In this document: in pieces, positions 1 through 56,405 of the stretch | How the letters are laid out: each line of letters opens with the position of its first letter | Numbering within the stretch: the stretch's first letter is position 1 | Assembly: GCA_029916745.1 (NCBI GenBank) | Contig: JARXWK010000018.1 | Coordinates: 1 to 64,000 of the forward strand | Length of the DNA: 64,000 nucleotides | Direction: 5' to 3' | Origin: Dysgonomonadaceae bacterium PH5-43 | Lineage (GTDB): Bacteria; Bacteroidota; Bacteroidia; Bacteroidales; Azobacteroidaceae | Notes under the pieces: generated by a model | What the model was told of the DNA's origin: nothing | What the model saw: only the letters and a program-made list of their open reading frames with translations | The model's database searches: none | Translations under genes and position numbers: made by a program

Positions 1-163
1 CTTTTAGTTTTTAACTTCGAGCTTGTCGCTTTGCGCCAGTTCTTAGTTCTTCACTCTATCCCCGTAGGCAACGCTTCGCTCGCCGTACGGCTATGGAATT
101 TCTATCCTTTGGATAGCACTAACTTTTATCTTTTAGTTTTTAGTTTTTAGTTTTTAACTTGAG
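1..163. other. Low-complexity intergenic DNA with TTTTTAG heptads
   Basis: No gene is visible. Positions 130-160 hold four successive copies of a TTTTTAG-like heptad, and similar runs occur at 1-16 and 38101-38130. A short GC-richer stretch (60-110) interrupts the AT-rich DNA. The block abuts the conserved terminus of the repeat array that follows, so the heptads may belong to the same dispersed intergenic family. Function unknown. Confidence 0.5.
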
Positions 164-432
164 AAATGCAAAGCTTCACTTAGGGTCGTCTCTCTACTAA
201 GAGACACCTCGTGTCTCTACTGAGATAGGCAAGGTGTCTCTACTAAGAACGACGGGGTGGTTCTACTAAGAGAGATTAGGCGGTTCTACTAAGAGCTGCA
301 TCGGGTCTCTACTAAGAAGCACCTCGCCTATCTACTAAGAACGAACAGGGGTATCTACTAAGAAAGAACTCGCCTTTCTAATAACAACTAAAAGGGGTAT
401 CTACTAAGAAAGATAAGGAGGTTCTATTTTCA
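161..432 (+). repeat. 23-bp periodic array, class A, locus 1 (TCTACTAAGA)
   Basis: The CTAA core of TCTACTAAGA recurs at 197, 220, 243, 266, 289, 312, 335, 358, 381, 404 and, degenerate, 427: eleven units at exactly 23 bp. Each unit has a conserved half (about 10-12 bp) and a variable, GC-richer half of 11-13 bp. Some variable halves are themselves palindromic (AGAGACAC-ctc-GTGTCTCT near 198-217). The outer end, 161-188, is a sequence found again in inverted orientation beside the arrays near 13.6 kb and 48.7 kb. The array stops 8 bp short of the Fic stop codon, so readthrough Fic mRNA would contain it. Confidence 0.9.
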
Positions 433-440
433 ATAATTTT

Positions 441-1538
441 CTAAAAGTCGTCCAATTCATAATTTGTACTTCTTCCTCCAGCTTCTTCTTGCTTTAAGAT
501 TCCTTTCTCTATCAAATCCTTAATATCTCTCAAAGCGGTATCTGCCGATGATTTTGTTATTTTCGCCCATTTAGAAGTTTTTAGCTTGCCGTCAAAACCA
601 TCTAACAGTTTATTCAACATCAATCGCTGACGAGCGTTCAGTTCTGTATCTTTATGCTTATCCCAAAAACTAACTTTCTGCAACACCTTTTGTAGGGTTT
701 CTTCTGCGGTAAGCAAACTACGATAAAGGCAATTCAAAAACCAATCTAACCATTCGGTTATATCTCCATCGCTGTATTGAACTTTTTGTAATGTTTCGTA
801 ATATACCTTCTTTTCTATTAGTATTTGACTTGATAAACTGTAAAATCGTTGAGTAGTATCATCGGAACGAGCAAGCAGCAAATCCGAAATTGCTCTTGCA
901 ATACGACCATTCCCATCGTCAAACGGGTGTATAATGATAAACCAAAAATGTGCAATAGCTGATTTAAGTACTAAGTCAATTTCAGTCTCTTCGTTAATCC
1001 ATTTTAGTAATACATTCATTTCAGCTTTCAACTGATTAGGTGGGGGTGCTTGAAAATGAACCTTCTCTTTGCCCATCGCTCCTGAAACAACTTGCATTTC
1101 TCCATTTCGATAACAACCAACTTCAATTTTATGCATTCCGCTTCTTCCTGTCGGGAATAAAGCAGAGTGCCAACCAAATAGACGTTCTTCGTCAAGAAGT
1201 TGATTATAATTTTGCGTTGCATCAAGCATCATTTCCACCACACCGTCAACATCTCTGTTAGAATAAACCATTCCTGCATATTCTAATCCCAACTTTCTTG
1301 CTATGGAAGAGCGAACTTGTTCATAATTTAGTTCCTCACCTTCTATTTCCGAAGATTTTAGAACATCAAGAGTTAAAGCCGTGAGCGTAGTTTCTTCTTT
1401 TAAAGAAAAACCCAATGCGCTCATCTGCCCAAAGAGTTTACCTTGTAAATGGCGAACTTTCCCAAGAATTACCTGTATCTTTTGTTCCTCCCAAACAAAA
1501 TTTGGCCAAGTGCTATATTGATAAATGTATTTTGCCAT
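441..1538 (-). CDS. Fic-family AMP-transferase with N-terminal inhibitory motif
   Basis: Fic proteins transfer AMP, or sometimes other groups, from nucleotides to hydroxyl side chains of target proteins. This 365-residue protein has the catalytic core HPFDDGNGRIAR (His about 204, Arg about 212 and 215), the canonical HxFx(D/E)GNGRxxR. Upstream, SSEIEG (about 62-67) fits the class II inhibitory motif (S/T)xxxE(G/N), so it should be auto-inhibited. The N-terminus resembles DUF4172 and the C-terminus (from about 310) looks like a winged helix, as in many Bacteroidetes Fic proteins. I chose the Met at 1538 because the upstream 31 codons are Cys-rich, unlike the family, and lie close to the promoter region. 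Targets unknown. No antitoxin partner gene is adjacent. Confidence 0.88.
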   Translation of the reverse strand: MAKYIYQYSTWPNFVWEEQKIQVILGKVRHLQGKLFGQMSALGFSLKEETTLTALTLDVLKSSEIEGEELNYEQVRSSIARKLGLEYAGMVYSNRDVDGVVEMMLDATQNYNQLLDEERLFGWHSALFPTGRSGMHKIEVGCYRNGEMQVVSGAMGKEKVHFQAPPPNQLKAEMNVLLKWINEETEIDLVLKSAIAHFWFIIIHPFDDGNGRIARAISDLLLARSDDTTQRFYSLSSQILIEKKVYYETLQKVQYSDGDITEWLDWFLNCLYRSLLTAEETLQKVLQKVSFWDKHKDTELNARQRLMLNKLLDGFDGKLKTSKWAKITKSSADTALRDIKDLIEKGILKQEEAGGRSTNYELDDF

Positions 1539-1640
1539 ATTATTTTTTCTTATGCAACAACAACAGTGAAAGCCAAAAGCAGAGTATATATTTCTTGAAC
1601 TATGCTTAGACAAATATCCTATTTTCTGCAAATATACAAA

Positions 1641-9641: not shown

Positions 9642-12137
9642 TTAATTGTTCACTATTTGACCATCGGCTATTCCCTGACAATCAATTATTATTTTGCTTC
9701 TTGAACTGTTATTATAGAACTGTATTTTTGCTTTGCCTTCATATTGTGTGTCTATATTAGGATTCCAATACAAAGTACGTCTGTAGTCGACATCGCCAAA
9801 GACGGGAGGATTAGCTTTGTAATTGGGATTATAAAAATCTTTTACCTCTGAATAACCTTGAAAACTGGTATGACGAAGACCATCAGGCAAATCCTGTATG
9901 TCATTGTCATTAAAAGAAACTAGGATAAATACTTTAGGAACAAATTCACCACCAGAACAAGGTGCTGTTGTTTTTGTCCAAGCAAATAAATCAGAATAAT
10001 AAATTTCTATTTTGGAAATTTCTTTGATATCCACTTTTTCAAGACGTTCATAAAAAGAGAATATCTTATTCTGTGTTTCTATCCGTTTGTCCGTGTCATA
10101 ATTGTAACACCAATGTACAATTTGACTTTTATAGTGTTTTATTCTTCCGCCTTCGTCTGGTACTGCATTTATATTGTATGGTATACCTTTTTTTACCAAA
10201 TATTCCTCTAATGTATAGAAATAATTCTCACCTTTATCTTGCCAATCATTATAGTCTTGCTCTACGTTAAGGATTATATCAGGGCCTTCATATTTAGAAG
10301 TTTTATCGTGTCTTATAACCACCTCTCTTAACAACTGTTCTTCTAACACCGAAGCTTTTCTCGACTTTTCATCTTGTAGTTTGGGAGATAGATAAAATCT
10401 ATTTTCGGTGTTCAATTCACTAAAAGCGAATCTTTTTGATTCGGGTATAAATAATCTATTTAGCAATATACGACTCTTAAATGTGTCGCCTTTGCGAGTT
10501 GCGTGAAGTCCTAAAAACCATTTGTTGTAAAGAGATATTGTATCTAACGAAAATGCAAACTCACCGTTCTTATCTGTTACAGCTTTACTCTTAAACAACA
10601 GAGAACCTTGTGTCATCCACATAAAGAGATTTACGTCTTTTGCTGGCTTTTTATTGTTTAACCCCAATATCTTACCTGTAACTAACAAGCCATCTTCTAT
10701 AGGGTGTGTTACATCAAAACTCTCAATCCCTGCCATACGTTTCCATTCGTAACGTCTCCAGCCATTGACCAACATTAAAAGGTCTAAATCTCTTTCACGC
10801 TTAGGTTTACTATCATCTTCTCCCTTGAAGTAATATGAAGGGTTATCGATATAGCCCTTAAGCTCTGACGACAAAAGCAGATTAGTGTAAATGTTATCGG
10901 GGTAATATTCCTCCAAACTGTTTACTGCCGACTTAACCGATAATGACAAATATGACGGTGTAAAACCTTCCTTATTTTTTGTCTCTACTGTAAGTTCAAT
11001 CAAATCAAATGGGTCATAAATTTCCTTTTTGCTCTTAATGGTTAATTTGGTTGTTTGTGGGTGAACAATGAAAACCATACGTTCAGCAAATACTTCACCT
11101 TTTTTGTCGAACAAGGTAATATTGTTAACACCTGTAGGGAGTGCCGACTCAGGAACAACTATCTCTCTGTAATCATCAGAGATAAAGGCATTGAAATAAT
11201 ATACCTTTCCTCTACAGGCTATACTTATACCTAAAGTATCTTGGGGTTGATTGTTTGTTTTGTTTACTTTTATAGATAGTTCTTTATTATCGGTCTTTCC
11301 TACCGACATAACATATCCCTCTTGAAGAGGAGTTGGTAATTCTACATCGTAAGTCTTATTATTGTAAAAGACCTTTGCCTTAAAGCCTTGATCTTCAGAG
11401 TTAATCTCGAAAGAACCTATACCTTGATGTTCGGTATTAAAACTTGCAAGTTCTTCGTTCCACATACTATAAACCTTGCCTGTTACAGATATGTTTGCGC
11501 CATTTTTATCGGTTGCCTTAAAAGCAACTCTCGAACGAAGACCTTTAACGAGATTGCCTCCTTCTGGATAGAAGGTAATATTAAGATCTTTGCGGTTTTC
11601 TTGTTTTGCTCTTGTTTTAGTTTGTTCGACAGCCCGACTATCGACTGTCATTTCAGAGTAATCACCCGTAACATCTGGACGTTCAAACACTGGCAGTACT
11701 CTACTATAAATAAAAGCTTCGCCAAAGTTAAGCATACAGCGAGTATAGGCTCTAACTTCATAAAAGTCTGAATGATACTTTTTAGTATTTAAGATAAACT
11801 CTCCGTGCGCTTGTCCGTTCTCTATCTTAAGCTTTTTGTTATCTAAAACATCGCCTCGCCCGTTAAGTAGCTCTACATACAGAACTTTACTTAAGTCGGT
11901 AAAAGTATTATTATCTGCTGAGACTACATAAGACTTAAACCATATTGTGTCGCCTACGAAATAACTTGTATTATCGAGATGTAAATAAACTTTCTCTTGC
12001 GGATAGTTGTAATTAAACGTGTGAATGTTCTTTACAAACTGAGCAAGTCTTTCTACTGCCGTAGAGTCCGATTGAGAGTAAACTCCCATAAAAGACAAAA
12101 CGACGAAAACGAAGAGTGTTGTAAAAAGCTTTTTCAT
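9642..12137 (-). CDS. Large exported MG2 (macroglobulin-type) protein, copy A
   Basis: An 831-residue exported protein of unknown role. It starts with a signal peptide (MKKLFTTLFVFVVLSFMGVYSQ); I use the Met at 12137, as the upstream MHTT adds nothing to it. Residues about 45-160 look like an MG2/macroglobulin beta-sandwich (YPQEKVYLHLDNTSYFVGDT, then FYEVRAYTRCMLNFG). More beta-rich domains follow, with a carboxypeptidase-regulatory-like stretch (about 485-560). The C-terminal part (LREVVIRHDK... GENYFYTLEEYLVKKG) is laid out like a TonB-receptor plug but has no barrel. Copy B lies at 13663-16131. The first 480 residues are almost identical; differences cluster near 490-590 and 655-700, suggesting duplication followed by gene conversion. 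Confidence 0.8.
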   Translation of the reverse strand: MKKLFTTLFVFVVLSFMGVYSQSDSTAVERLAQFVKNIHTFNYNYPQEKVYLHLDNTSYFVGDTIWFKSYVVSADNNTFTDLSKVLYVELLNGRGDVLDNKKLKIENGQAHGEFILNTKKYHSDFYEVRAYTRCMLNFGEAFIYSRVLPVFERPDVTGDYSEMTVDSRAVEQTKTRAKQENRKDLNITFYPEGGNLVKGLRSRVAFKATDKNGANISVTGKVYSMWNEELASFNTEHQGIGSFEINSEDQGFKAKVFYNNKTYDVELPTPLQEGYVMSVGKTDNKELSIKVNKTNNQPQDTLGISIACRGKVYYFNAFISDDYREIVVPESALPTGVNNITLFDKKGEVFAERMVFIVHPQTTKLTIKSKKEIYDPFDLIELTVETKNKEGFTPSYLSLSVKSAVNSLEEYYPDNIYTNLLLSSELKGYIDNPSYYFKGEDDSKPKRERDLDLLMLVNGWRRYEWKRMAGIESFDVTHPIEDGLLVTGKILGLNNKKPAKDVNLFMWMTQGSLLFKSKAVTDKNGEFAFSLDTISLYNKWFLGLHATRKGDTFKSRILLNRLFIPESKRFAFSELNTENRFYLSPKLQDEKSRKASVLEEQLLREVVIRHDKTSKYEGPDIILNVEQDYNDWQDKGENYFYTLEEYLVKKGIPYNINAVPDEGGRIKHYKSQIVHWCYNYDTDKRIETQNKIFSFYERLEKVDIKEISKIEIYYSDLFAWTKTTAPCSGGEFVPKVFILVSFNDNDIQDLPDGLRHTSFQGYSEVKDFYNPNYKANPPVFGDVDYRRTLYWNPNIDTQYEGKAKIQFYNNSSRSKIIIDCQGIADGQIVNN

Positions 12138-12152
12138 GGTAGTGTGCATTCA

Positions 12153-13077: not shown

Positions 13078-13371
13078 ATTAATTATTCAGCGAAAACTTT
13101 ATCTTTTTTTCTATTTCCCAAAAATTCTCGACATTTTCTCTACTTACTTATTTTCACAAGACTTCTCTTTTTTCTATTATTTTGACATTATCGACCCTTT
13201 GTGTCAATTAAGAAAGAAGACAAGAGAGTAAGCAAACTACCCCAATAGGCAACTGTCTGTAATTCCTTAACTCTCGGAGAAGAGCATAAAAGTGAGCGAC
13301 TGGACAAATGCGCGGCTATATATCTCTCTCGAAGAGCTTTTTCGCTCTCAGGAGAACTCCCTTATCGCTCT

Positions 13372-13628
13372 TAGCAGATAGGCGAGCGGGTTGTTACTAT
13401 ATACCCCTTGTCGCTCTTAGTAGATACCCTAGCCTTTGTTAGTAGAAAGGGGAGTTGCTTCTTAGTAGAGACCCGATGCAGCTCTTAGTAGAACCACCCC
13501 GTCTTTATACTTAAAGCACCCCATCGTTCTTAGTAGAGAGACCTCCCCTCTCTTAGTAGATAGGCAAGGGGTCTCTTAGTAGAGAGGCGACCCTAAGTGA
13601 AGCTTTGCATTTTTAGGAGAAAAATACT
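13372..13628 (-). repeat. 23-bp periodic array, class A, locus 2
   Basis: On the plus strand this reads TCTTAGTAGA, so it is inverted relative to locus 1. TTAG cores fall at 13417, 13439, 13462, 13485, 13530, 13553 and 13576, steps of 22-23 bp or a multiple, with degenerate units at about 13375, 13394 and 13511. A run of about 35 bp spanning two units (13460-13494) is the reverse complement of DNA in locus 1. The conserved terminus follows at 13595-13628 and lies beside the stop of MG2 copy B. Confidence 0.88.
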
Positions 13629-13662: not shown

Positions 13663-16131
13663 TCAATTATTCACTATTTGACCATCAAATATTCCCTGAC
13701 AATCTATTATTATTTTGCTTCTTGAACTGTTATTATAGAACTGTATTTTTGCTTTGCCTTCATACCGCGTATCTATATTAGGATTCCAATACAAAGTGCG
13801 TCTGTAATCTACATCACCAAAAACAGGAGGATTAGCTTTGTAATCGGGATTGTAAAAGTCTTTCACGTCTGAATAGCCTTGAAAACTGGTATGACGAAGA
13901 CCTTCGGGTAAATATTGTATATCATTATCTTTAAACGAAACATAAAAAAACACTAAGGGAACTAATTCACCACCAGAACAAGGTGCTGTTGTTTTAGTCC
14001 AAGCAAATAAATCAGAATAATAAATTTCTATTTTGGAAATTTCTTTGATATCCACTTTTGCAAGACGTTCATAAAAAGAGAATATCTTTCTTTGCGATCT
14101 TATAATGTTATTAGGATCTCCATAGCACCATTTTATTGATTGGTTTTTGTATTTATCTGCATATATATCATAAGGGATACCTTTCTTTAATAAATACTCA
14201 TCAATAGTATAGAAATAATTCTCACCCTTGTCTTGCCAATCATTATAATCTTGCTCTACGTTAAGGATTATATCAGGGCCATCATATTTAGAAGTTTTAT
14301 CGTGTCTTATAACCACCTCTCTTAATAACTGTTCTTCTAACACCGAAGCTTTTCTCGACTTTTCATCTTGCAGTTTGGGAGATAGATAAAATCTATTTTC
14401 TGTGTCTAATTCGCTGGAATAATATAATCTAGCTTTTGGTATAAATAATCTGTTTAGTAATATTCTACTCTTGAAAGTTTTGTTCTTTTTGCTCGCATGA
14501 AGTCCTAAAAAGTATTTATCGTAAAGAGAGATGGTGTCCAACGAAAATGCAAACCCTCCATTTTCATCTGTTACTGCCTTGCTCCTGAACGATAAAGAAT
14601 CTTGTGTCATCCACATGAAAAGATTTATATCTTTTGCTGGTTTTTTATTGCGAAAGTTCAACACCTTACCCGTAATTAACAAACTCTCTTCTATAGGGTG
14701 CGTTACTTCAAAACTCTCAATCCCTGCCATACGTTTCCATTCGTAACGTCTCCAACCATTGACCAGCATTAGGAGATCTAAATCTCTTTCACGCTTAGGT
14801 TTACTATCATCTTCTCCCTTGAAGTAATATGAAGGGTTATCGATATAACCCTTAAGCTCTGATGATAAAAGCAGATTAGTGTAAATGTTGTCGGGGTAAT
14901 ATTCCTCCAAACTGTTTACTGCTGATTTTACCGACAAAGATAGATTTGAAGGAGTAAAACCTTCCTTATTTTTTGTCTCTACTGTAAGTTCAATTAAATC
15001 AAATGGGTCATAGATTTCCTTTTTGCTCTTAATGGTTAATTTGGTTGTTTGTGGGTGAACAATGAAAACCATACGTTCAGCAAATACTTCACCTTTTTTG
15101 TCGAACAAGGTAATATTGTTAACACCTGTAGGGAGTGCTGACTCAGGAACAACTATCTCTCTGTAATCATCAGAGATAAAGGCATTGAAATAATATACCT
15201 TTCCTCTACAGGCTATACTTATACCTAAAGTGTCTTGTGGTTGATTGTTTGTTTTGTTTACTTTTATAGATAGTTCTTTATTATCGGTCTTTCCTACCGA
15301 CATAACATATCCCTCTTGAAGAGGAGTTGGTAATTCTACATCGTAAGTCTTATTATTGTAAAAGACTTTTGCCTTAAAGCCTTGATCTTCAGAGTTAATC
15401 TCGAAAGAACCTATACCTTGATGTTCGGTATTAAAACTTGCAAGTTCTTCGTTCCACATACTATAAACCTTGCCTGTTACAGATATGTTAGCGCCATTTT
15501 TATCGGTTGCCTTAAAAGCAACCCTCGAACGAAGACCTTTAACGAGATTGCCTCCTTCGGGATAGAATGTAATATTAAGGTCTTTGCGGTTTTCTTGTTT
15601 GGCTCTTGTTTTAGTTTGTTCGACAGCCCGACTATCGACTGTCATTTCAGAGTAATCACCCGTAACATCTGGACGTTCAAACACTGGCAGTACTCTACTA
15701 TAAATAAAAGCCTCACCAAAGTTAAGCATACAACGAGTATAGGCTCTAACCTCATAAAAGTCTGAATGATACTCTTTAGTATTTAAGATAAACTCTCCGT
15801 GCGCTTGTCCGTTCTCTATCTTAAGCTTCTTATTATCTAAAACATCGCCTCGTCCATTCAAAAGCTCTACATACAGAACTTTACTTAAGTCGGTAAAAGT
15901 ATTGTTATCTGCTGAGACTACATAAGACTTAAACCATATTGTGTCGCCTACGAAATAACTTGTATTATCGAGATGTAAATAAACTTTCTCTTGCGGATAG
16001 TTGTAATTGAAAGAATGGATATTCTTAATAAACTGAGCAAGTCTATCAACCGCCGTAGAGTCCGATTGAGAGTAAACTCCCATAAAAGACAAAACGACGA
16101 AAATGAAGAGTGTTGTAAAAAGCTTTTTCAT
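13663..16131 (-). CDS. Large exported MG2 (macroglobulin-type) protein, copy B
   Basis: Paralogue of the gene at 9642-12137; 822 residues from the Met at 16131. Signal peptide, MG2-like domain (about 45-160), middle beta domains and plug-like C-terminus are the same. Identity is near complete over the first 480 residues and again at the C-terminus. The regions around 490-590 and 655-700 differ by many substitutions and short indels, so surface variation may be concentrated there. The upstream dyad (16147-16182) is kept as well. What the protein binds is unknown; MG2 domains otherwise occur in protease-trapping macroglobulins, but no thioester CxEQ motif is visible. Confidence 0.8.
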   Translation of the reverse strand: MKKLFTTLFIFVVLSFMGVYSQSDSTAVDRLAQFIKNIHSFNYNYPQEKVYLHLDNTSYFVGDTIWFKSYVVSADNNTFTDLSKVLYVELLNGRGDVLDNKKLKIENGQAHGEFILNTKEYHSDFYEVRAYTRCMLNFGEAFIYSRVLPVFERPDVTGDYSEMTVDSRAVEQTKTRAKQENRKDLNITFYPEGGNLVKGLRSRVAFKATDKNGANISVTGKVYSMWNEELASFNTEHQGIGSFEINSEDQGFKAKVFYNNKTYDVELPTPLQEGYVMSVGKTDNKELSIKVNKTNNQPQDTLGISIACRGKVYYFNAFISDDYREIVVPESALPTGVNNITLFDKKGEVFAERMVFIVHPQTTKLTIKSKKEIYDPFDLIELTVETKNKEGFTPSNLSLSVKSAVNSLEEYYPDNIYTNLLLSSELKGYIDNPSYYFKGEDDSKPKRERDLDLLMLVNGWRRYEWKRMAGIESFEVTHPIEESLLITGKVLNFRNKKPAKDINLFMWMTQDSLSFRSKAVTDENGGFAFSLDTISLYDKYFLGLHASKKNKTFKSRILLNRLFIPKARLYYSSELDTENRFYLSPKLQDEKSRKASVLEEQLLREVVIRHDKTSKYDGPDIILNVEQDYNDWQDKGENYFYTIDEYLLKKGIPYDIYADKYKNQSIKWCYGDPNNIIRSQRKIFSFYERLAKVDIKEISKIEIYYSDLFAWTKTTAPCSGGELVPLVFFYVSFKDNDIQYLPEGLRHTSFQGYSDVKDFYNPDYKANPPVFGDVDYRRTLYWNPNIDTRYEGKAKIQFYNNSSRSKIIIDCQGIFDGQIVNN

Positions 16132-16146
16132 GGTAGTGTGCATTCA

Positions 16147-27995: not shown

Positions 27996-28155
27996 GTTTC
28001 AAATTAGTTTCAGCCGTGTGAAACAACTTGTTTCAGTTAGGTGAAACAAACAGTTTCAGTTAGATGAAACAACTCGTTTCAGTTAGGTGAAACAACTTGT
28101 TTCACCAGTATGAAATGAACCGTTTCACCAATATGAAATGAATTGTTTCATCAGA
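27996..28155. repeat. 23-bp periodic array, class B, locus 1 (GTTTCA-N6-TGAAAC)
   Basis: GTTTCA begins at 28007, 28030, 28053, 28076, 28099, 28122 and 28145: seven units at exactly 23 bp, plus a degenerate start at 27996. Each unit is an 18-bp dyad GTTTCA-N6-TGAAAC plus a 5-bp spacer. Units five and six have TGAAAT, which still pairs by G-U on the plus strand. The array begins 11 bp after the fucosidase stop and ends before a shared terminator, between convergent genes. Confidence 0.9.
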
Positions 28156-28224
28156 GGAAAGGGATAATATCATTAAAAGGAAAAAGTAAAACATCTTGCT
28201 GACGTCGAGATTAAAGCTATAAAT

Positions 28225-37829: not shown

Positions 37830-38089
37830 GACTCTAATACGCTTCGCGTAAACTCTTAGTTCTTAGTTCTTAATTCTTAGTTGAAAGCCTTTTTTTATTT
37901 CAACCGTTTGAAACGAGTAGTTTCTATAGTATGAAACAAGGTGTTTCACCTATATGAAACAAGTAGTTTCGCCTAATGAAACAAATTATGTCGAAGTGCA
38001 AAACAGATTGTTTTAGTTGTATGAAACAATTCGTTTCAAAGTATGAGATGGATTATGTTTAAGTTTTTGCGCAAAGCATATTAGAGTCG
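37830..38089. repeat. 23-bp periodic array, class B, locus 2, flanked by inverted repeats
   Basis: GTTTC starts at 37921, 37944 and 37967 (23-bp steps); degenerate units follow at 37991 and 38011, a good one at 38034, and another degenerate one near 38058. Most have the TGAAAC partner arm. The block is bounded by 37830-37848 and 38070-38089, which are inverted repeats matching at 17 of 19 positions (GACTCTAATAyGCTTyGCG). Together they make a unit of about 260 bp resembling a non-coding mobile element. It lies between divergent genes. Confidence 0.75.
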
Positions 38090-46731: not shown

Positions 46732-48129
46732 TTACTTCACAATAACTTTATTACCGTTAACAATATAAACACCTTTAACTAAAGATATTTCTTCATATCC
46801 ATTAACAACAGATTGATAAACTTTCTGTGCTGACATATTGAATATAGAGATAGTTGTAGCTTCTTTTGTTTCTATAACGATACCGTTTGAAGTAGATTGA
46901 ATAGAGATATTATTATTATTAACACTACCAATTGAAGTGAAATCTTTTTCTATGATATTTAAGAAGTCGCTCCAACCAGACGCTGCTGCATAATCTGCCA
47001 TTGAACCCATAGGAACGTATAATTTACATATATCTTTGTCCACTTTCTCAAAACTATTCGCGTTTATAGTTGAAGGAGTTTCACTTTTACAATATACACC
47101 AGTTAATTCAGTACAATCTCTAAAAGCATAACTTCCAATCGTAGTTACACTTTCGGGGATAGTTATACTTTTCAAGCCTGTACAACCTCTAAACGCAGAA
47201 CTACCAATTGAAGCTACACCATTTGGAATAGTTATACTTTCCAAACTAACACAACCTCTAAAAGCATAACTCCCAATCGTAGTTACACCATTTGGAATGA
47301 CAATGTTTTCTAAGCCAATACAATTAGTGAAAACAGATGAACCAATCTTAGTTACACCATTAGGGATAATTATACTTGCCAAGCAGGCACAACCTTTAAA
47401 AGCATTATCGCCAATCTTAGTTACGCTATTTGGAATAATAATATCTATCAAACTCGCACAACTTTCAAAAGCACTCTCTTTAATCTCTATTACGCTATTT
47501 GGAATAGAATAAGTATCTGACTTTGCATTAGGATATGCCACTAAAACCGTTGTATCCTTATCGAATAAAACCCCTTCTAAACTTGAATAAGTTTCATTTT
47601 CGTTAGACACTTTGAACTCTCGAATGTTAATACAGTCAGTAAAAGCATTTTTTTCTATATTATTTACATCACTTGGAATAGTAACGCTTGTTAAGTTGGC
47701 ACAACCATACATAGCACCCTCACCTATTCCTGTTATGCTGTTTGGCAGAACAATAGAAGATAAATTTGTTTGAAAAAACATATAACTTCCTATAACATTA
47801 GGTGTTGTAATAGTCTCAAAATGATAACCAGCCCCACCTGCAACAATATTTGCATCTGCTAAATTTAGCTTAGTTAATGCTCCCTCTGTTTTGTCTCCTG
47901 CAGCATCCATTCCTGCCATTTCTCTAATAAAGCGAATGTCATCACCATTTAAATCACCAGTTAGGGTTAAATCAACAATTTCATTCTTTTGACCTCCCGC
48001 AATAAGAGACGATAAAGTACCTGCCGTTTCTACGTTTAGAGTAACTTTGGTTTCTTGTGCCCACAAATTAAGTTGAGATAGCAAAGCCATTACTACCAAC
48101 AATGTTCTGAAAAGTAATTTTTTATTCAT
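46732..48129 (-). CDS. BspA-like leucine-rich-repeat surface protein
   Basis: 465 residues with signal peptide KKLLFRTLLVVMALLSQLNLWAQ. A cap region (about 25-100) precedes about eight LRR_5 repeats of 23 residues (consensus SITIPNGVTTIGSYAFRGC), giving a 69-bp DNA repeat. These Treponema pallidum-type LRRs mediate adhesion to host matrix or other bacteria. Residues about 395-465 form a tail ending ISLVKGVYIVNGNKVIVK, resembling a gliding-type sorting domain. Repeats four to seven are very alike in DNA, so copy number may vary between strains. Confidence 0.88.
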   Translation of the reverse strand: MNKKLLFRTLLVVMALLSQLNLWAQETKVTLNVETAGTLSSLIAGGQKNEIVDLTLTGDLNGDDIRFIREMAGMDAAGDKTEGALTKLNLADANIVAGGAGYHFETITTPNVIGSYMFFQTNLSSIVLPNSITGIGEGAMYGCANLTSVTIPSDVNNIEKNAFTDCINIREFKVSNENETYSSLEGVLFDKDTTVLVAYPNAKSDTYSIPNSVIEIKESAFESCASLIDIIIPNSVTKIGDNAFKGCACLASIIIPNGVTKIGSSVFTNCIGLENIVIPNGVTTIGSYAFRGCVSLESITIPNGVASIGSSAFRGCTGLKSITIPESVTTIGSYAFRDCTELTGVYCKSETPSTINANSFEKVDKDICKLYVPMGSMADYAAASGWSDFLNIIEKDFTSIGSVNNNNISIQSTSNGIVIETKEATTISIFNMSAQKVYQSVVNGYEEISLVKGVYIVNGNKVIVK

Positions 48130-48277: not shown

Positions 48278-48435
48278 ATGCTTTTTATTAAAAAATTTAT
48301 AATTTATATATTTCAAGCTTATATGTTTTGTAATCATAAGCGATATACAACAACTATTATAGTAACAATCTAAGCAACAAGAATAAAAGACAGTTATTAT
48401 ACTCCTCTATACATCTTTGCAGCCCCCTTGCCATT

Positions 48436-48717
48436 ATTATTAGATAGGCGAGTTGTTTCTTACTAAAGCCCCCCTGTCGTTCTTAGTAGAGACACCTCGT
48501 CGCTCTTAGTAGAGACCCCTCGTCGCTCTTAGTAGAGACCCCCTGTCGCTCTTAGTAGGGACCCGATACCGCTCTTAGTATAACGGTCTCGTCTTTATAC
48601 TTAAGACACCCCGCCGTTCTTAGTAGAGACACCTCGCCTATCTACTAAGAGCGACGAGGTGTCTCTACTAAGAGAGGAGGCATAAAGTGAAGCTTTGCAT
48701 TTTTAGGAGAAAAATAC
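48436..48717 (-). repeat. 23-bp periodic array, class A, locus 3, with inverted end
   Basis: TTAG cores at 48440, 48460 (degenerate), 48483, 48506, 48529, 48552, 48575, 48601 (degenerate) and 48620. Then the orientation flips: CTAA cores at 48645 and 48668, again 23 bp apart. The flip creates a perfect inverted repeat of about 18 bp (CTTAGTAGAGACACCTCG and its complement). The degenerate TATACTTAA unit has the same place and spacing as in locus 2. The shared terminus (48683-48717, AGTGAAGCTTTGCATTTTTA...) follows, 39 bp before the next start codon. Confidence 0.88.
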
Positions 48718-56274: not shown

Positions 56275-56358
56275 TATCTTTGCACTGTGTTTTTCATGGT
56301 ATTAGATTTAAGGTTAACAATGAAGATTGGTTGTCGCGAGGACAACCTTTTCTTTTTT
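56275..56358 (+). ncRNA. Candidate small RNA with terminator (56289-56358)
   Basis: TATCTTTG (56275-56282) is a full -7 box; the predicted start is near 56289. The transcript of about 70 nt contains GGTATTAGATTTAAGGTTAAC and ends in the hairpin GGTTGTC-gcgag-GACAACC (56329-56347) followed by a T-rich tract. I recall very similar short leaders and RNAs in other Bacteroidetes genomes, which supports a conserved structured RNA, but cannot name the family with confidence. No coding frame of note. Confidence 0.6.
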
Positions 56359-56405
56359 AAATAAATTCATTAAAAAAGTACAGTTCTAAGCTTTATTATA
56401 AAACA

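What the first reader, a model, noticed from the sequence alone, without database searches (positions are those of the whole stretch)
161..432. Exact 23-bp periodic array with a constant and a variable half (class A, locus 1)
Eleven consecutive units have their CTAA core at exactly 23-bp steps (197 to 427). About 10-12 bp are constant (TCTACTAAGA) and 11-13 bp vary and are GC-richer than the surroundings. A strict period with changing content is unlike a simple slippage microsatellite and too short for CRISPR. It could be an array of protein sites at a fixed helical phase, or a repeat that forms tandem RNA structures at the 3' end of the fic mRNA.
Basis: seen in the sequence. Interest (0 to 1): 0.85.

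Follow-up and report, generated by a model that had tools for sequence, protein, structure and literature searches.

The report
Dispersed 23-bp palindromic repeat element
The array beside the fic gene is one copy of a short non-coding repeat element scattered through this bacterium's chromosome, built from ordered 23-base partly symmetric units, and a sister species carries a related version in which the shared half of the units has a different sequence.

Summary
The array is real: 10 in-register sites, shuffle maximum 2. It is one copy of an intergenic element, a fixed head plus a ladder of 23-bp units, at about 88 loci in the 2.54-Mb genome. The 'variable' half is an ordered set of words shared between copies (identity 0.75 at the same position, 0.41 at different ones). 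The TCTACTAAGA pair pattern is absent from 57 relatives. The nearest congener examined, G024, has a dispersed family with the same period and related variable words, but of the constant half only TACT is shared. Seven of nine sites compared are occupied in one species only. Copies fold well on both strands with little common fold; no Y1 transposase. Together with a second 23-bp family (class B), arrays on seven contigs are spaced more evenly than random. Best reading: a BOX/BIME-like dispersed palindromic element acting, if at all, as DNA; not a fic-specific RNA. Even spacing and the changed common half leave room for a chromosome-organising role; that is inference.

The parts
167..191 (+). 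Head of class A element, copy 1
   Evidence: Motif TGCAAAGCTTCACTT: 58 hits with at most 1 mismatch in the own genome, 57 of them element heads
193..435 (+). Ladder of 23-bp units, copy 1 (the finding); ends within about 20 bp of the stop codon of the fic gene
121..160 (+). Heptamer repeats (TTTTAGT) just upstream of copy 1
   Evidence: 17 of 57 heads have at least 2 such heptamers within 70 nt upstream
13125..13613 (-). Class A copy 2 with the extra 3' tail (approximate: tail 13125-13365, units 13369-13583, head 13585-13609)
48433..48703 (-). Class A copy 3 (approximate limits); its first two units carry the inverted core (TCTTAGTAGA), register kept
28006..28160 (.). Class B array (TGAAAC-N5-GTTTCA, 23-bp period); in G024 the matching gene pair encloses a G024-type array
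37905..38060 (.). Second class B array, between heptamer repeats
441..1631 (-). Neighbouring gene: DUF4172 plus Fic domain; the element lies beyond its 3' end

Best explanation
The array is one copy of a non-coding, dispersed, palindrome-rich intergenic element that multiplied in this chromosome and, separately, in that of a sister species, most likely as a non-autonomous mobile or otherwise duplicated repeat tolerated at the ends of transcription units, as BOX elements and BIMEs are. If it acts, it acts as DNA. Each 23-bp unit has a constant half with dyad symmetry (TCT-ACTA-AGA here; mostly RATACTCTTC, or inverted GRTAAGTATY, in the sister) and a position-specific half. The constant halves within an element are held to a common pattern, because they pair with one another in hairpins or cruciforms or share one binding factor, so they changed together in at least one lineage while the position-specific words stayed recognisable. 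Shown: dispersal, order, period, word similarity with a different constant half, site turnover. Inferred: mobility as the route, DNA-level action, the shared partner or pairing.
For: About 88 loci. No called ORF of 90 aa or more overlaps by more than 60 nt in 57 of 57 copies; three ORFs touch the edge by 8-27 nt. Ordered words in 26 copies (0.75 against 0.41). Seven of nine readable sites occupied in one species only. Bridging word CGACGGGGTGNTNNTACT with at most 2 mismatches: 58 hits here (control 1), 40 in G024 (control 4), 0-5 in each of the other 36 genus genomes (controls 0-21). 51 G024 words match own words at 9.55 of 13 against 6.80 (sd 0.19) for shuffled ones, best in register 0. Pairs 1-10 and 2-9 of the constant half are Watson-Crick in 207 and 197 of 208 own units; in G024 Watson-Crick or G-T in 60 and 87 of 105; arms mixed between species pair in 207 and 246 of 18720 (three of seven G024 sites used). 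Copies fold better than shuffles on both strands (mean z -3.3 to -4.4, 47 copies). Inverted core in 49 of 299 ACTA/TAGT units with register kept.
Against: No transposase, terminal repeats or target-site duplication identified; Y1 absent, other transposases not sought. Two of nine sites are occupied in both species. Even spacing is not what plain selfish spread predicts. Own words reverse-complemented also match G024 words (8.73 of 13), so self-complementarity explains part of the similarity. The G024 dyad is imperfect: A-C in 43 of 105 at pair 1-10, 18 of 105 at 2-9, and pair 3-8 broken in 70 of 105; G024 units have more than one constant form, e.g. GATACTTACC at one site in 9 of 15. The constant-half contrast rests on units picked by their motif. 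Inverted cores do not favour longer stems (P = 0.24).
Confidence: 0.5

Rival explanations
1. Chromosome-organising or topology sites: class A and class B arrays are interchangeable landing arrays for a dyad-recognising DNA-binding protein or topoisomerase, placed at operon ends about every 18 kb; the constant half follows the protein's specificity.
For: Contigs C1-C7, A and B together, 38 spacings: CV 0.51 against 0.90 for random placement (0 of 5000 as even; 0.0012 with a 3-kb exclusion built in); 4 spacings under 10 kb against 15.4 expected. Convergent flanks in 16 of 48 copies against 5 of 42 gene pairs of the window (P = 0.024). Two families of different sequence share the 23-bp period. 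The gene pair that holds class B here holds a G024-type array in the sister.
Against: On C1-C8 class A alone (CV 0.74, P = 0.19), class B alone (P = 0.076) and the distance of B to the nearest A (P = 0.14) are not significant. A and B lie side by side at L080. No candidate protein was sought. Most compared sites are not shared with the sister. The spacing test was thought of after seeing the positions and places random points over genes too.
Confidence: 0.22
2. A family of structured RNAs (dispersed small RNA or 3'UTR element) made of tandem hairpins.
For: Copy 1 folds as RNA at -84.2 kcal/mol, z -3.4. A 29-nt-arm stem around unit 1 pairs at 0.68 in 54 copies, against 0.37-0.60 around the other constant halves. 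Several short copies end in a hairpin followed by T-rich sequence (read).
Against: Alifold energies of -13.7 to -18.8 against mean single-copy energies of -62.6 to -84.3 kcal/mol; the reverse strand folds about as well (gap-free register alignments). No marked orientation to genes. No Rfam match at E up to 1 for copy 1, a sub-threshold MIR319 match for copy 2.
Confidence: 0.12
3. REP/BIME proper, mobilised by a RAYT (Y1) transposase.
For: Palindromic, extragenic, species-specific repeats, as described for REPs (PMC3733652, passages).
Against: No Y1 match in a genome scored 99.97% complete, while the same search rings in 5 of 14 control genomes, E. coli among them. GTAG/CGTC tags were not searched for.
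Confidence: 0.03
4. Neutral tandem-repeat growth by slippage, without an element.
For: Repeated identical stretches in own L030 (46 bp, three times) and G024 L189.
Against: A fixed head at 57 sites and ordered words are not made by local slippage.
Confidence: 0.03

Closest known systems
BOX elements of Streptococcus pneumoniae (boxA-boxBn-boxC)
   Same: Modular interspersed element with end modules and a tandem array of variable length between, predicted to fold (PMC3049150, passages read)
   Different: boxB copies are repeats of one module; here the units carry an ordered set of different words with one common half at a strict 23-bp step. Sequence homology was not tested.
REP/BIME (GTAG and CGTC repeats)
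   Same: Palindromic, extragenic, some families species-specific (PMC3733652, passages read)
   Different: No Y1/RAYT gene here; a ladder of about 10 units
MITEs
   Same: Short, non-coding, base-paired, many copies, site turnover (features as summarised in PMC3049150)
   Different: Terminal inverted repeats, target-site duplication and partner transposase not shown here
Cyanobacterial STRR heptanucleotide repeats
   Same: Heptamer arrays lie beside the elements and occur in congeners; the likeness to STRR is recalled, and one search gave listings only
   Different: Other phylum; the heptamers are neighbours of the 23-bp elements, not the elements themselves

Membership tests
BOX-like modular intergenic element (analogy) | End module(s) and a tandem array, dispersed in intergenic DNA | tested here: met
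   Head at 57 sites, array, a tail at 36 sites; no ORF overlap over 60 nt in 57 of 57
BOX-like modular intergenic element (analogy) | Sequence homology to boxA, boxB or boxC | not tested
   No comparison was made
REP/BIME with RAYT | Y1 (RAYT) transposase in the genome | tested here: not met
   PF01797: 0 matches in own genome; rings in 5 of 14 control genomes
REP/BIME with RAYT | GTAG or CGTC tag at one end of the palindrome | not tested
   No scan was made
MITE | Terminal inverted repeats and target-site duplication | tested here: inconclusive
   Flanks looked at by eye and by column counts only; empty sites too diverged to place the ends
MITE | Presence or absence at orthologous sites | tested here: met
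   7 of 9 readable sites (10 candidates) occupied in one species only
CRISPR | Direct repeat with mutually unrelated spacers | tested here: not met
   The 'spacers' are words repeated in order in many copies
Structured ncRNA family | Conserved consensus fold, better on one strand | tested here: not met
   a partial recurrent stem around unit 1 is seen

The most novel reading that the evidence does not exclude
Class A and class B arrays are equivalent chromosome-organising sites, spaced about every 18 kb, bound through the dyad-symmetric constant half by a fast-evolving protein; in one of two sister species the constant halves, about ten per element in tens of elements, moved together to another motif while the rest of each unit stayed homologous.
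Probability: 0.16. Interest if true: 0.88.

Novelty: new variant of a known kind. Interest (0 to 1): 0.6.

Why it matters
Dispersed bacterial repeats are usually read as selfish or as RNA hairpins. Here a 23-bp architecture appears in two families of different sequence in one genome and, with another common half, in a sister species, where the distinct halves of the units are still recognisable. That pattern suggests a constraint on the common half, either pairing between units or a shared binding partner. Whether such repeats serve the chromosome becomes testable by a pull-down or by one more close species.

Tried and rejected
Rejected: CRISPR (ordered shared words); RAYT-driven REP; a fic-specific 3'UTR element (dispersal); a conserved RNA fold. 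A viral origin was looked at by pattern only: one contig for the class A pair pattern, a short unlike repeat; 6 contigs for the bridging word, 0 for the G024 pattern, 1 for class B; the stretches around those seven hits have lag-23 identity 0.19-0.32. The one named genome with the class A pair pattern, a betaproteobacterial MAG, holds an unlike short repeat. Both scans say that the window's own genome may be left out.

One search compared stem pairing within copies with pairing after arms were shuffled between copies. It gave z down to -7.4 around units 0-2, I think because shuffles mix inverted and plain cores, and z up to +5.0 around units 4 and 6 and down to -5.5 around some variable halves. 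The mixed result is not used as evidence of covariation. Column covariation mostly shows two alternative unit types. Paper searches: the string TCTACTAAGA is in 38 papers, 20 listed, none opened, titles off-topic; searches for such repeats in Bacteroidetes or like terms listed none that by title or abstract start describes this element. This does not show absence from print.

Limits. Stretches, not whole genomes, of 17 congeners besides G024 were scanned for periodicity (7.5 to 152 kb each). The scan finds 4 of the 5 arrays known in the window, so it can miss weak ones. Of the 17 only G008 gave a 23-bp array, a near-perfect tandem of another kind, plus 42-bp and 22/44-bp arrays. The listing was cut after contig 13 and that within contig 8, so the 88 loci are an estimate and class B positions are complete, for that strict pattern, only on C1-C7. 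Dropped before counts: L063 (unrelated head hit); 2 of 45 window ORFs; headed copies that fitted neither type (26 and 26 of 57 kept) and 6 of 21 G024 loci (15 kept). L188 against L055 could not be judged in the site comparison. In this check I lowered two odds: the imperfect G024 dyad and its several constant forms weaken the claim that constant halves must match.

Full report
Observation. The window region 193-422 holds units TCTACTAAGA-N13 in one 23-bp register. Ten sites fit TCT-N4-AGA with at most one mismatch against a mean of 0.80 and a maximum of 2 in 2000 shuffles.

A dispersed element. The pair pattern occurs 184 times in the window's own genome (91 forward, 93 reverse, control 0). 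The head TGCAAAGCTTCACTT occurs 58 times with at most one mismatch (28 forward, 30 reverse, control 1); one hit (L063) is not an element. Copies were read in 71 stretches (output was cut, one search shows the units of all headed copies). A typical copy is the head followed by units 0 to about 10; some are truncated (L027, or at contig ends L037, L039). The half that looked variable is an ordered set of words, such as GACCCCTCGTGTC or relatives at unit 0, ACGACGGGGTGGT at unit 2, GAGATTAGGCGGT at unit 3. In 26 copies of one type, identity of this half is 0.75 at the same position and 0.41 at different positions; by position it falls from 0.92 (unit 3) to 0.47 (unit 7). A second type has another, one base shorter, stretch at units 3-4. 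A 3' tail is seen in 13 of the 57 headed copies; its core has 36 hits in the own genome and none in 37 other genus genomes. Clustering heads, tails and listed arrays gives 88 loci, an estimate because one list was cut. Of 57 copies none is overlapped by more than 60 nt by a called ORF (three ORFs touch by 8-27 nt); of 48 with both neighbours seen, 16 lie between convergent, 11 between divergent and 21 between co-directional ORFs, against 5, 5 and 32 of 42 neighbouring ORF pairs in the window (P = 0.024 for convergent, 0.0025 for co-directional).

Distribution. The exact pair pattern is in 1 of 58 genomes (the own; 33 congeners and 24 of the same order lack it); a BLAST search with copy 1 agrees. 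One match each in the named-genome and viral collections is unlike.

The sister species. By one 603-aa protein (chloride-channel-like to my eye, not tested), G024 is the nearest of the 36 congeners with a match (88%). It carries arrays with another constant half, RATACTCTTCGC, at the same 23-bp step: 95 pair hits with at most 3 mismatches, none in 37 other genus genomes including the own. I read 20 further loci and L096. In register, 51 distinct G024 words match own words at 9.55 of 13 on average against 6.80 (sd 0.19) for shuffled words; the other registers from -6 to 6 give 4.67 to 7.76. Own words reverse-complemented give 8.73, so self-complementarity adds to the match. In the constant halves, which were picked by motif, TACT is common and the other six bases differ. 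The bridging word with at most two mismatches gives 58 hits here (control 1), 40 in G024 (control 4) and 0 to 5 in each of the other 36 (controls 0 to 21). I take the two families as homologous, with the common half of the units changed in at least one lineage.

Symmetry. In 208 own units pairs 1-10, 2-9 and 3-8 of the constant half are Watson-Crick in 207, 197 and 207. In 105 G024 units (15 loci, 7 sites) pair 1-10 is Watson-Crick in 48, G-T in 12, A-C in 43; pair 2-9 is Watson-Crick in 67, G-T in 20, A-C in 18; pair 3-8 is Watson-Crick in 35 and broken in 70. Arms mixed between species pair in 207 and 246 of 18720 at the first two pairs. So two outer pairs differ in both bases between species while symmetry is largely kept at 2-9 and partly at 1-10; the third pair is mostly lost in G024. 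G024 also has inverted (GRTAAGTATY) and variant (GATACTTACC) units at particular sites. This supports, without proving, a constraint on dyad symmetry, and cannot tell a hairpin from a dimer site. Of 299 own units with ACTA or TAGT cores, 49 have the inverted core, in copies whose neighbouring words are kept; they do not favour longer stems (P = 0.24). Small inversions inside hairpins are known from plastid DNA (recalled; listings only).

RNA reading. Copies fold better than shuffles on both strands (group means of z from -3.26 to -4.37, 47 copies, 40 shuffles each). The common fold is weak: alifold -13.7 to -18.8 kcal/mol against mean single-copy energies of -62.6 to -84.3 (gap-free alignments, which is a limit). 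A stem around unit 1 recurs (pairing 0.68 over 29-nt arms). Rfam gives nothing for copy 1 at E up to 1 and a sub-threshold MIR319 match for copy 2.

Turnover. Best tblastn matches (60-94% identity) between fetched own and G024 stretches give ten sites, nine readable; the match is on one side of the element except at L184, where both neighbours match. Four are occupied here only (L014, L013, L071, L028; at L013 the gene beyond was not compared), three in G024 only (L186 after fmt, L190, L193), one in both with each species' own motif (L080 and L182), and one with class B here and a G024-type array there (window 28 kb and L184). Gain or loss dominates, which favours a mobile or duplicating element. 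No Y1 transposase is in the genome; others were not searched.

Class B and spacing. A second family, TGAAAC-N5-GTTTCA at the same step, has 177 hits here and 0 or 1 in each of 57 relatives. On contigs C1-C7, A and B together have 38 spacings with CV 0.51 against 0.90 for random placement (0 of 5000; 0.0012 if a 3-kb exclusion is built in) and 4 spacings under 10 kb against 15.4 expected. On C1-C8, class A alone (P = 0.19), B alone (P = 0.076) and avoidance of A by B (P = 0.14) are not significant. Class A on 23 contigs gave CV 0.60 against 0.87 (0.0004, two contig lengths guessed, list incomplete). The test was thought of after seeing the positions. At L080 an A and a B array lie side by side.

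Interpretation. Anatomy and turnover fit a dispersed, non-coding, palindrome-rich element like pneumococcal BOX elements or BIMEs. What exceeds these is the ordered 23-bp ladder and the common half that differs between sister species while the distinct halves stay alike. The simplest account is that constant halves within an element are held to a common pattern, by mutual pairing or by one partner, and that a changed master copy then multiplied. Even spacing adds a weaker hint of a chromosome-level role. Mobility, the partner and any function are inference.

Noticed in passing
Congener stretches L146, L147, L149 (G030), L159 (G027), L203, L205 (G007), L208 (G058), L096, L114 (G024): Heptamer (7-bp) arrays, some as inverted pairs, with a sequence that differs between species by eye; in G024 at least 3 heptamers lie upstream in 7 and downstream in 14 of 21 element loci.
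   Followed up: partly
L154:7626-7830, L155:4575-4830, L155:19330-19430 (G008): Another congener has a near-perfect 23-bp tandem array and arrays with 42-bp and 22-bp periods that look palindromic.
   Followed up: partly
window 9642-12149 and 13663-16143: Two 92%-identical paralogues (no Pfam match for the second); class A copy 2 lies beyond the 3' end of the second, and a third paralogue on contig 14 also has an element head just beyond its 3' end.
   Followed up: partly
window 56287-56359: Rfam match to BTncRNA_FopS, a Bacteroidetes family of paralogous small RNAs.
   Followed up: no
L023 and L052 downstream of the element: GATA tetranucleotide runs next to two element copies.
   Followed up: no
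L177, L179, L186, L190 (G024); L013:2034-2150 (own): Palindromic stretches around CACGTGCGAAAATTTC in G024 and GTACGTAAATTTATTTTCATACG in the own genome near elements.
   Followed up: no
window 47109-47506: 69-bp tandem repeats inside the gene of a BspA-type leucine-rich repeat protein.
   Followed up: no
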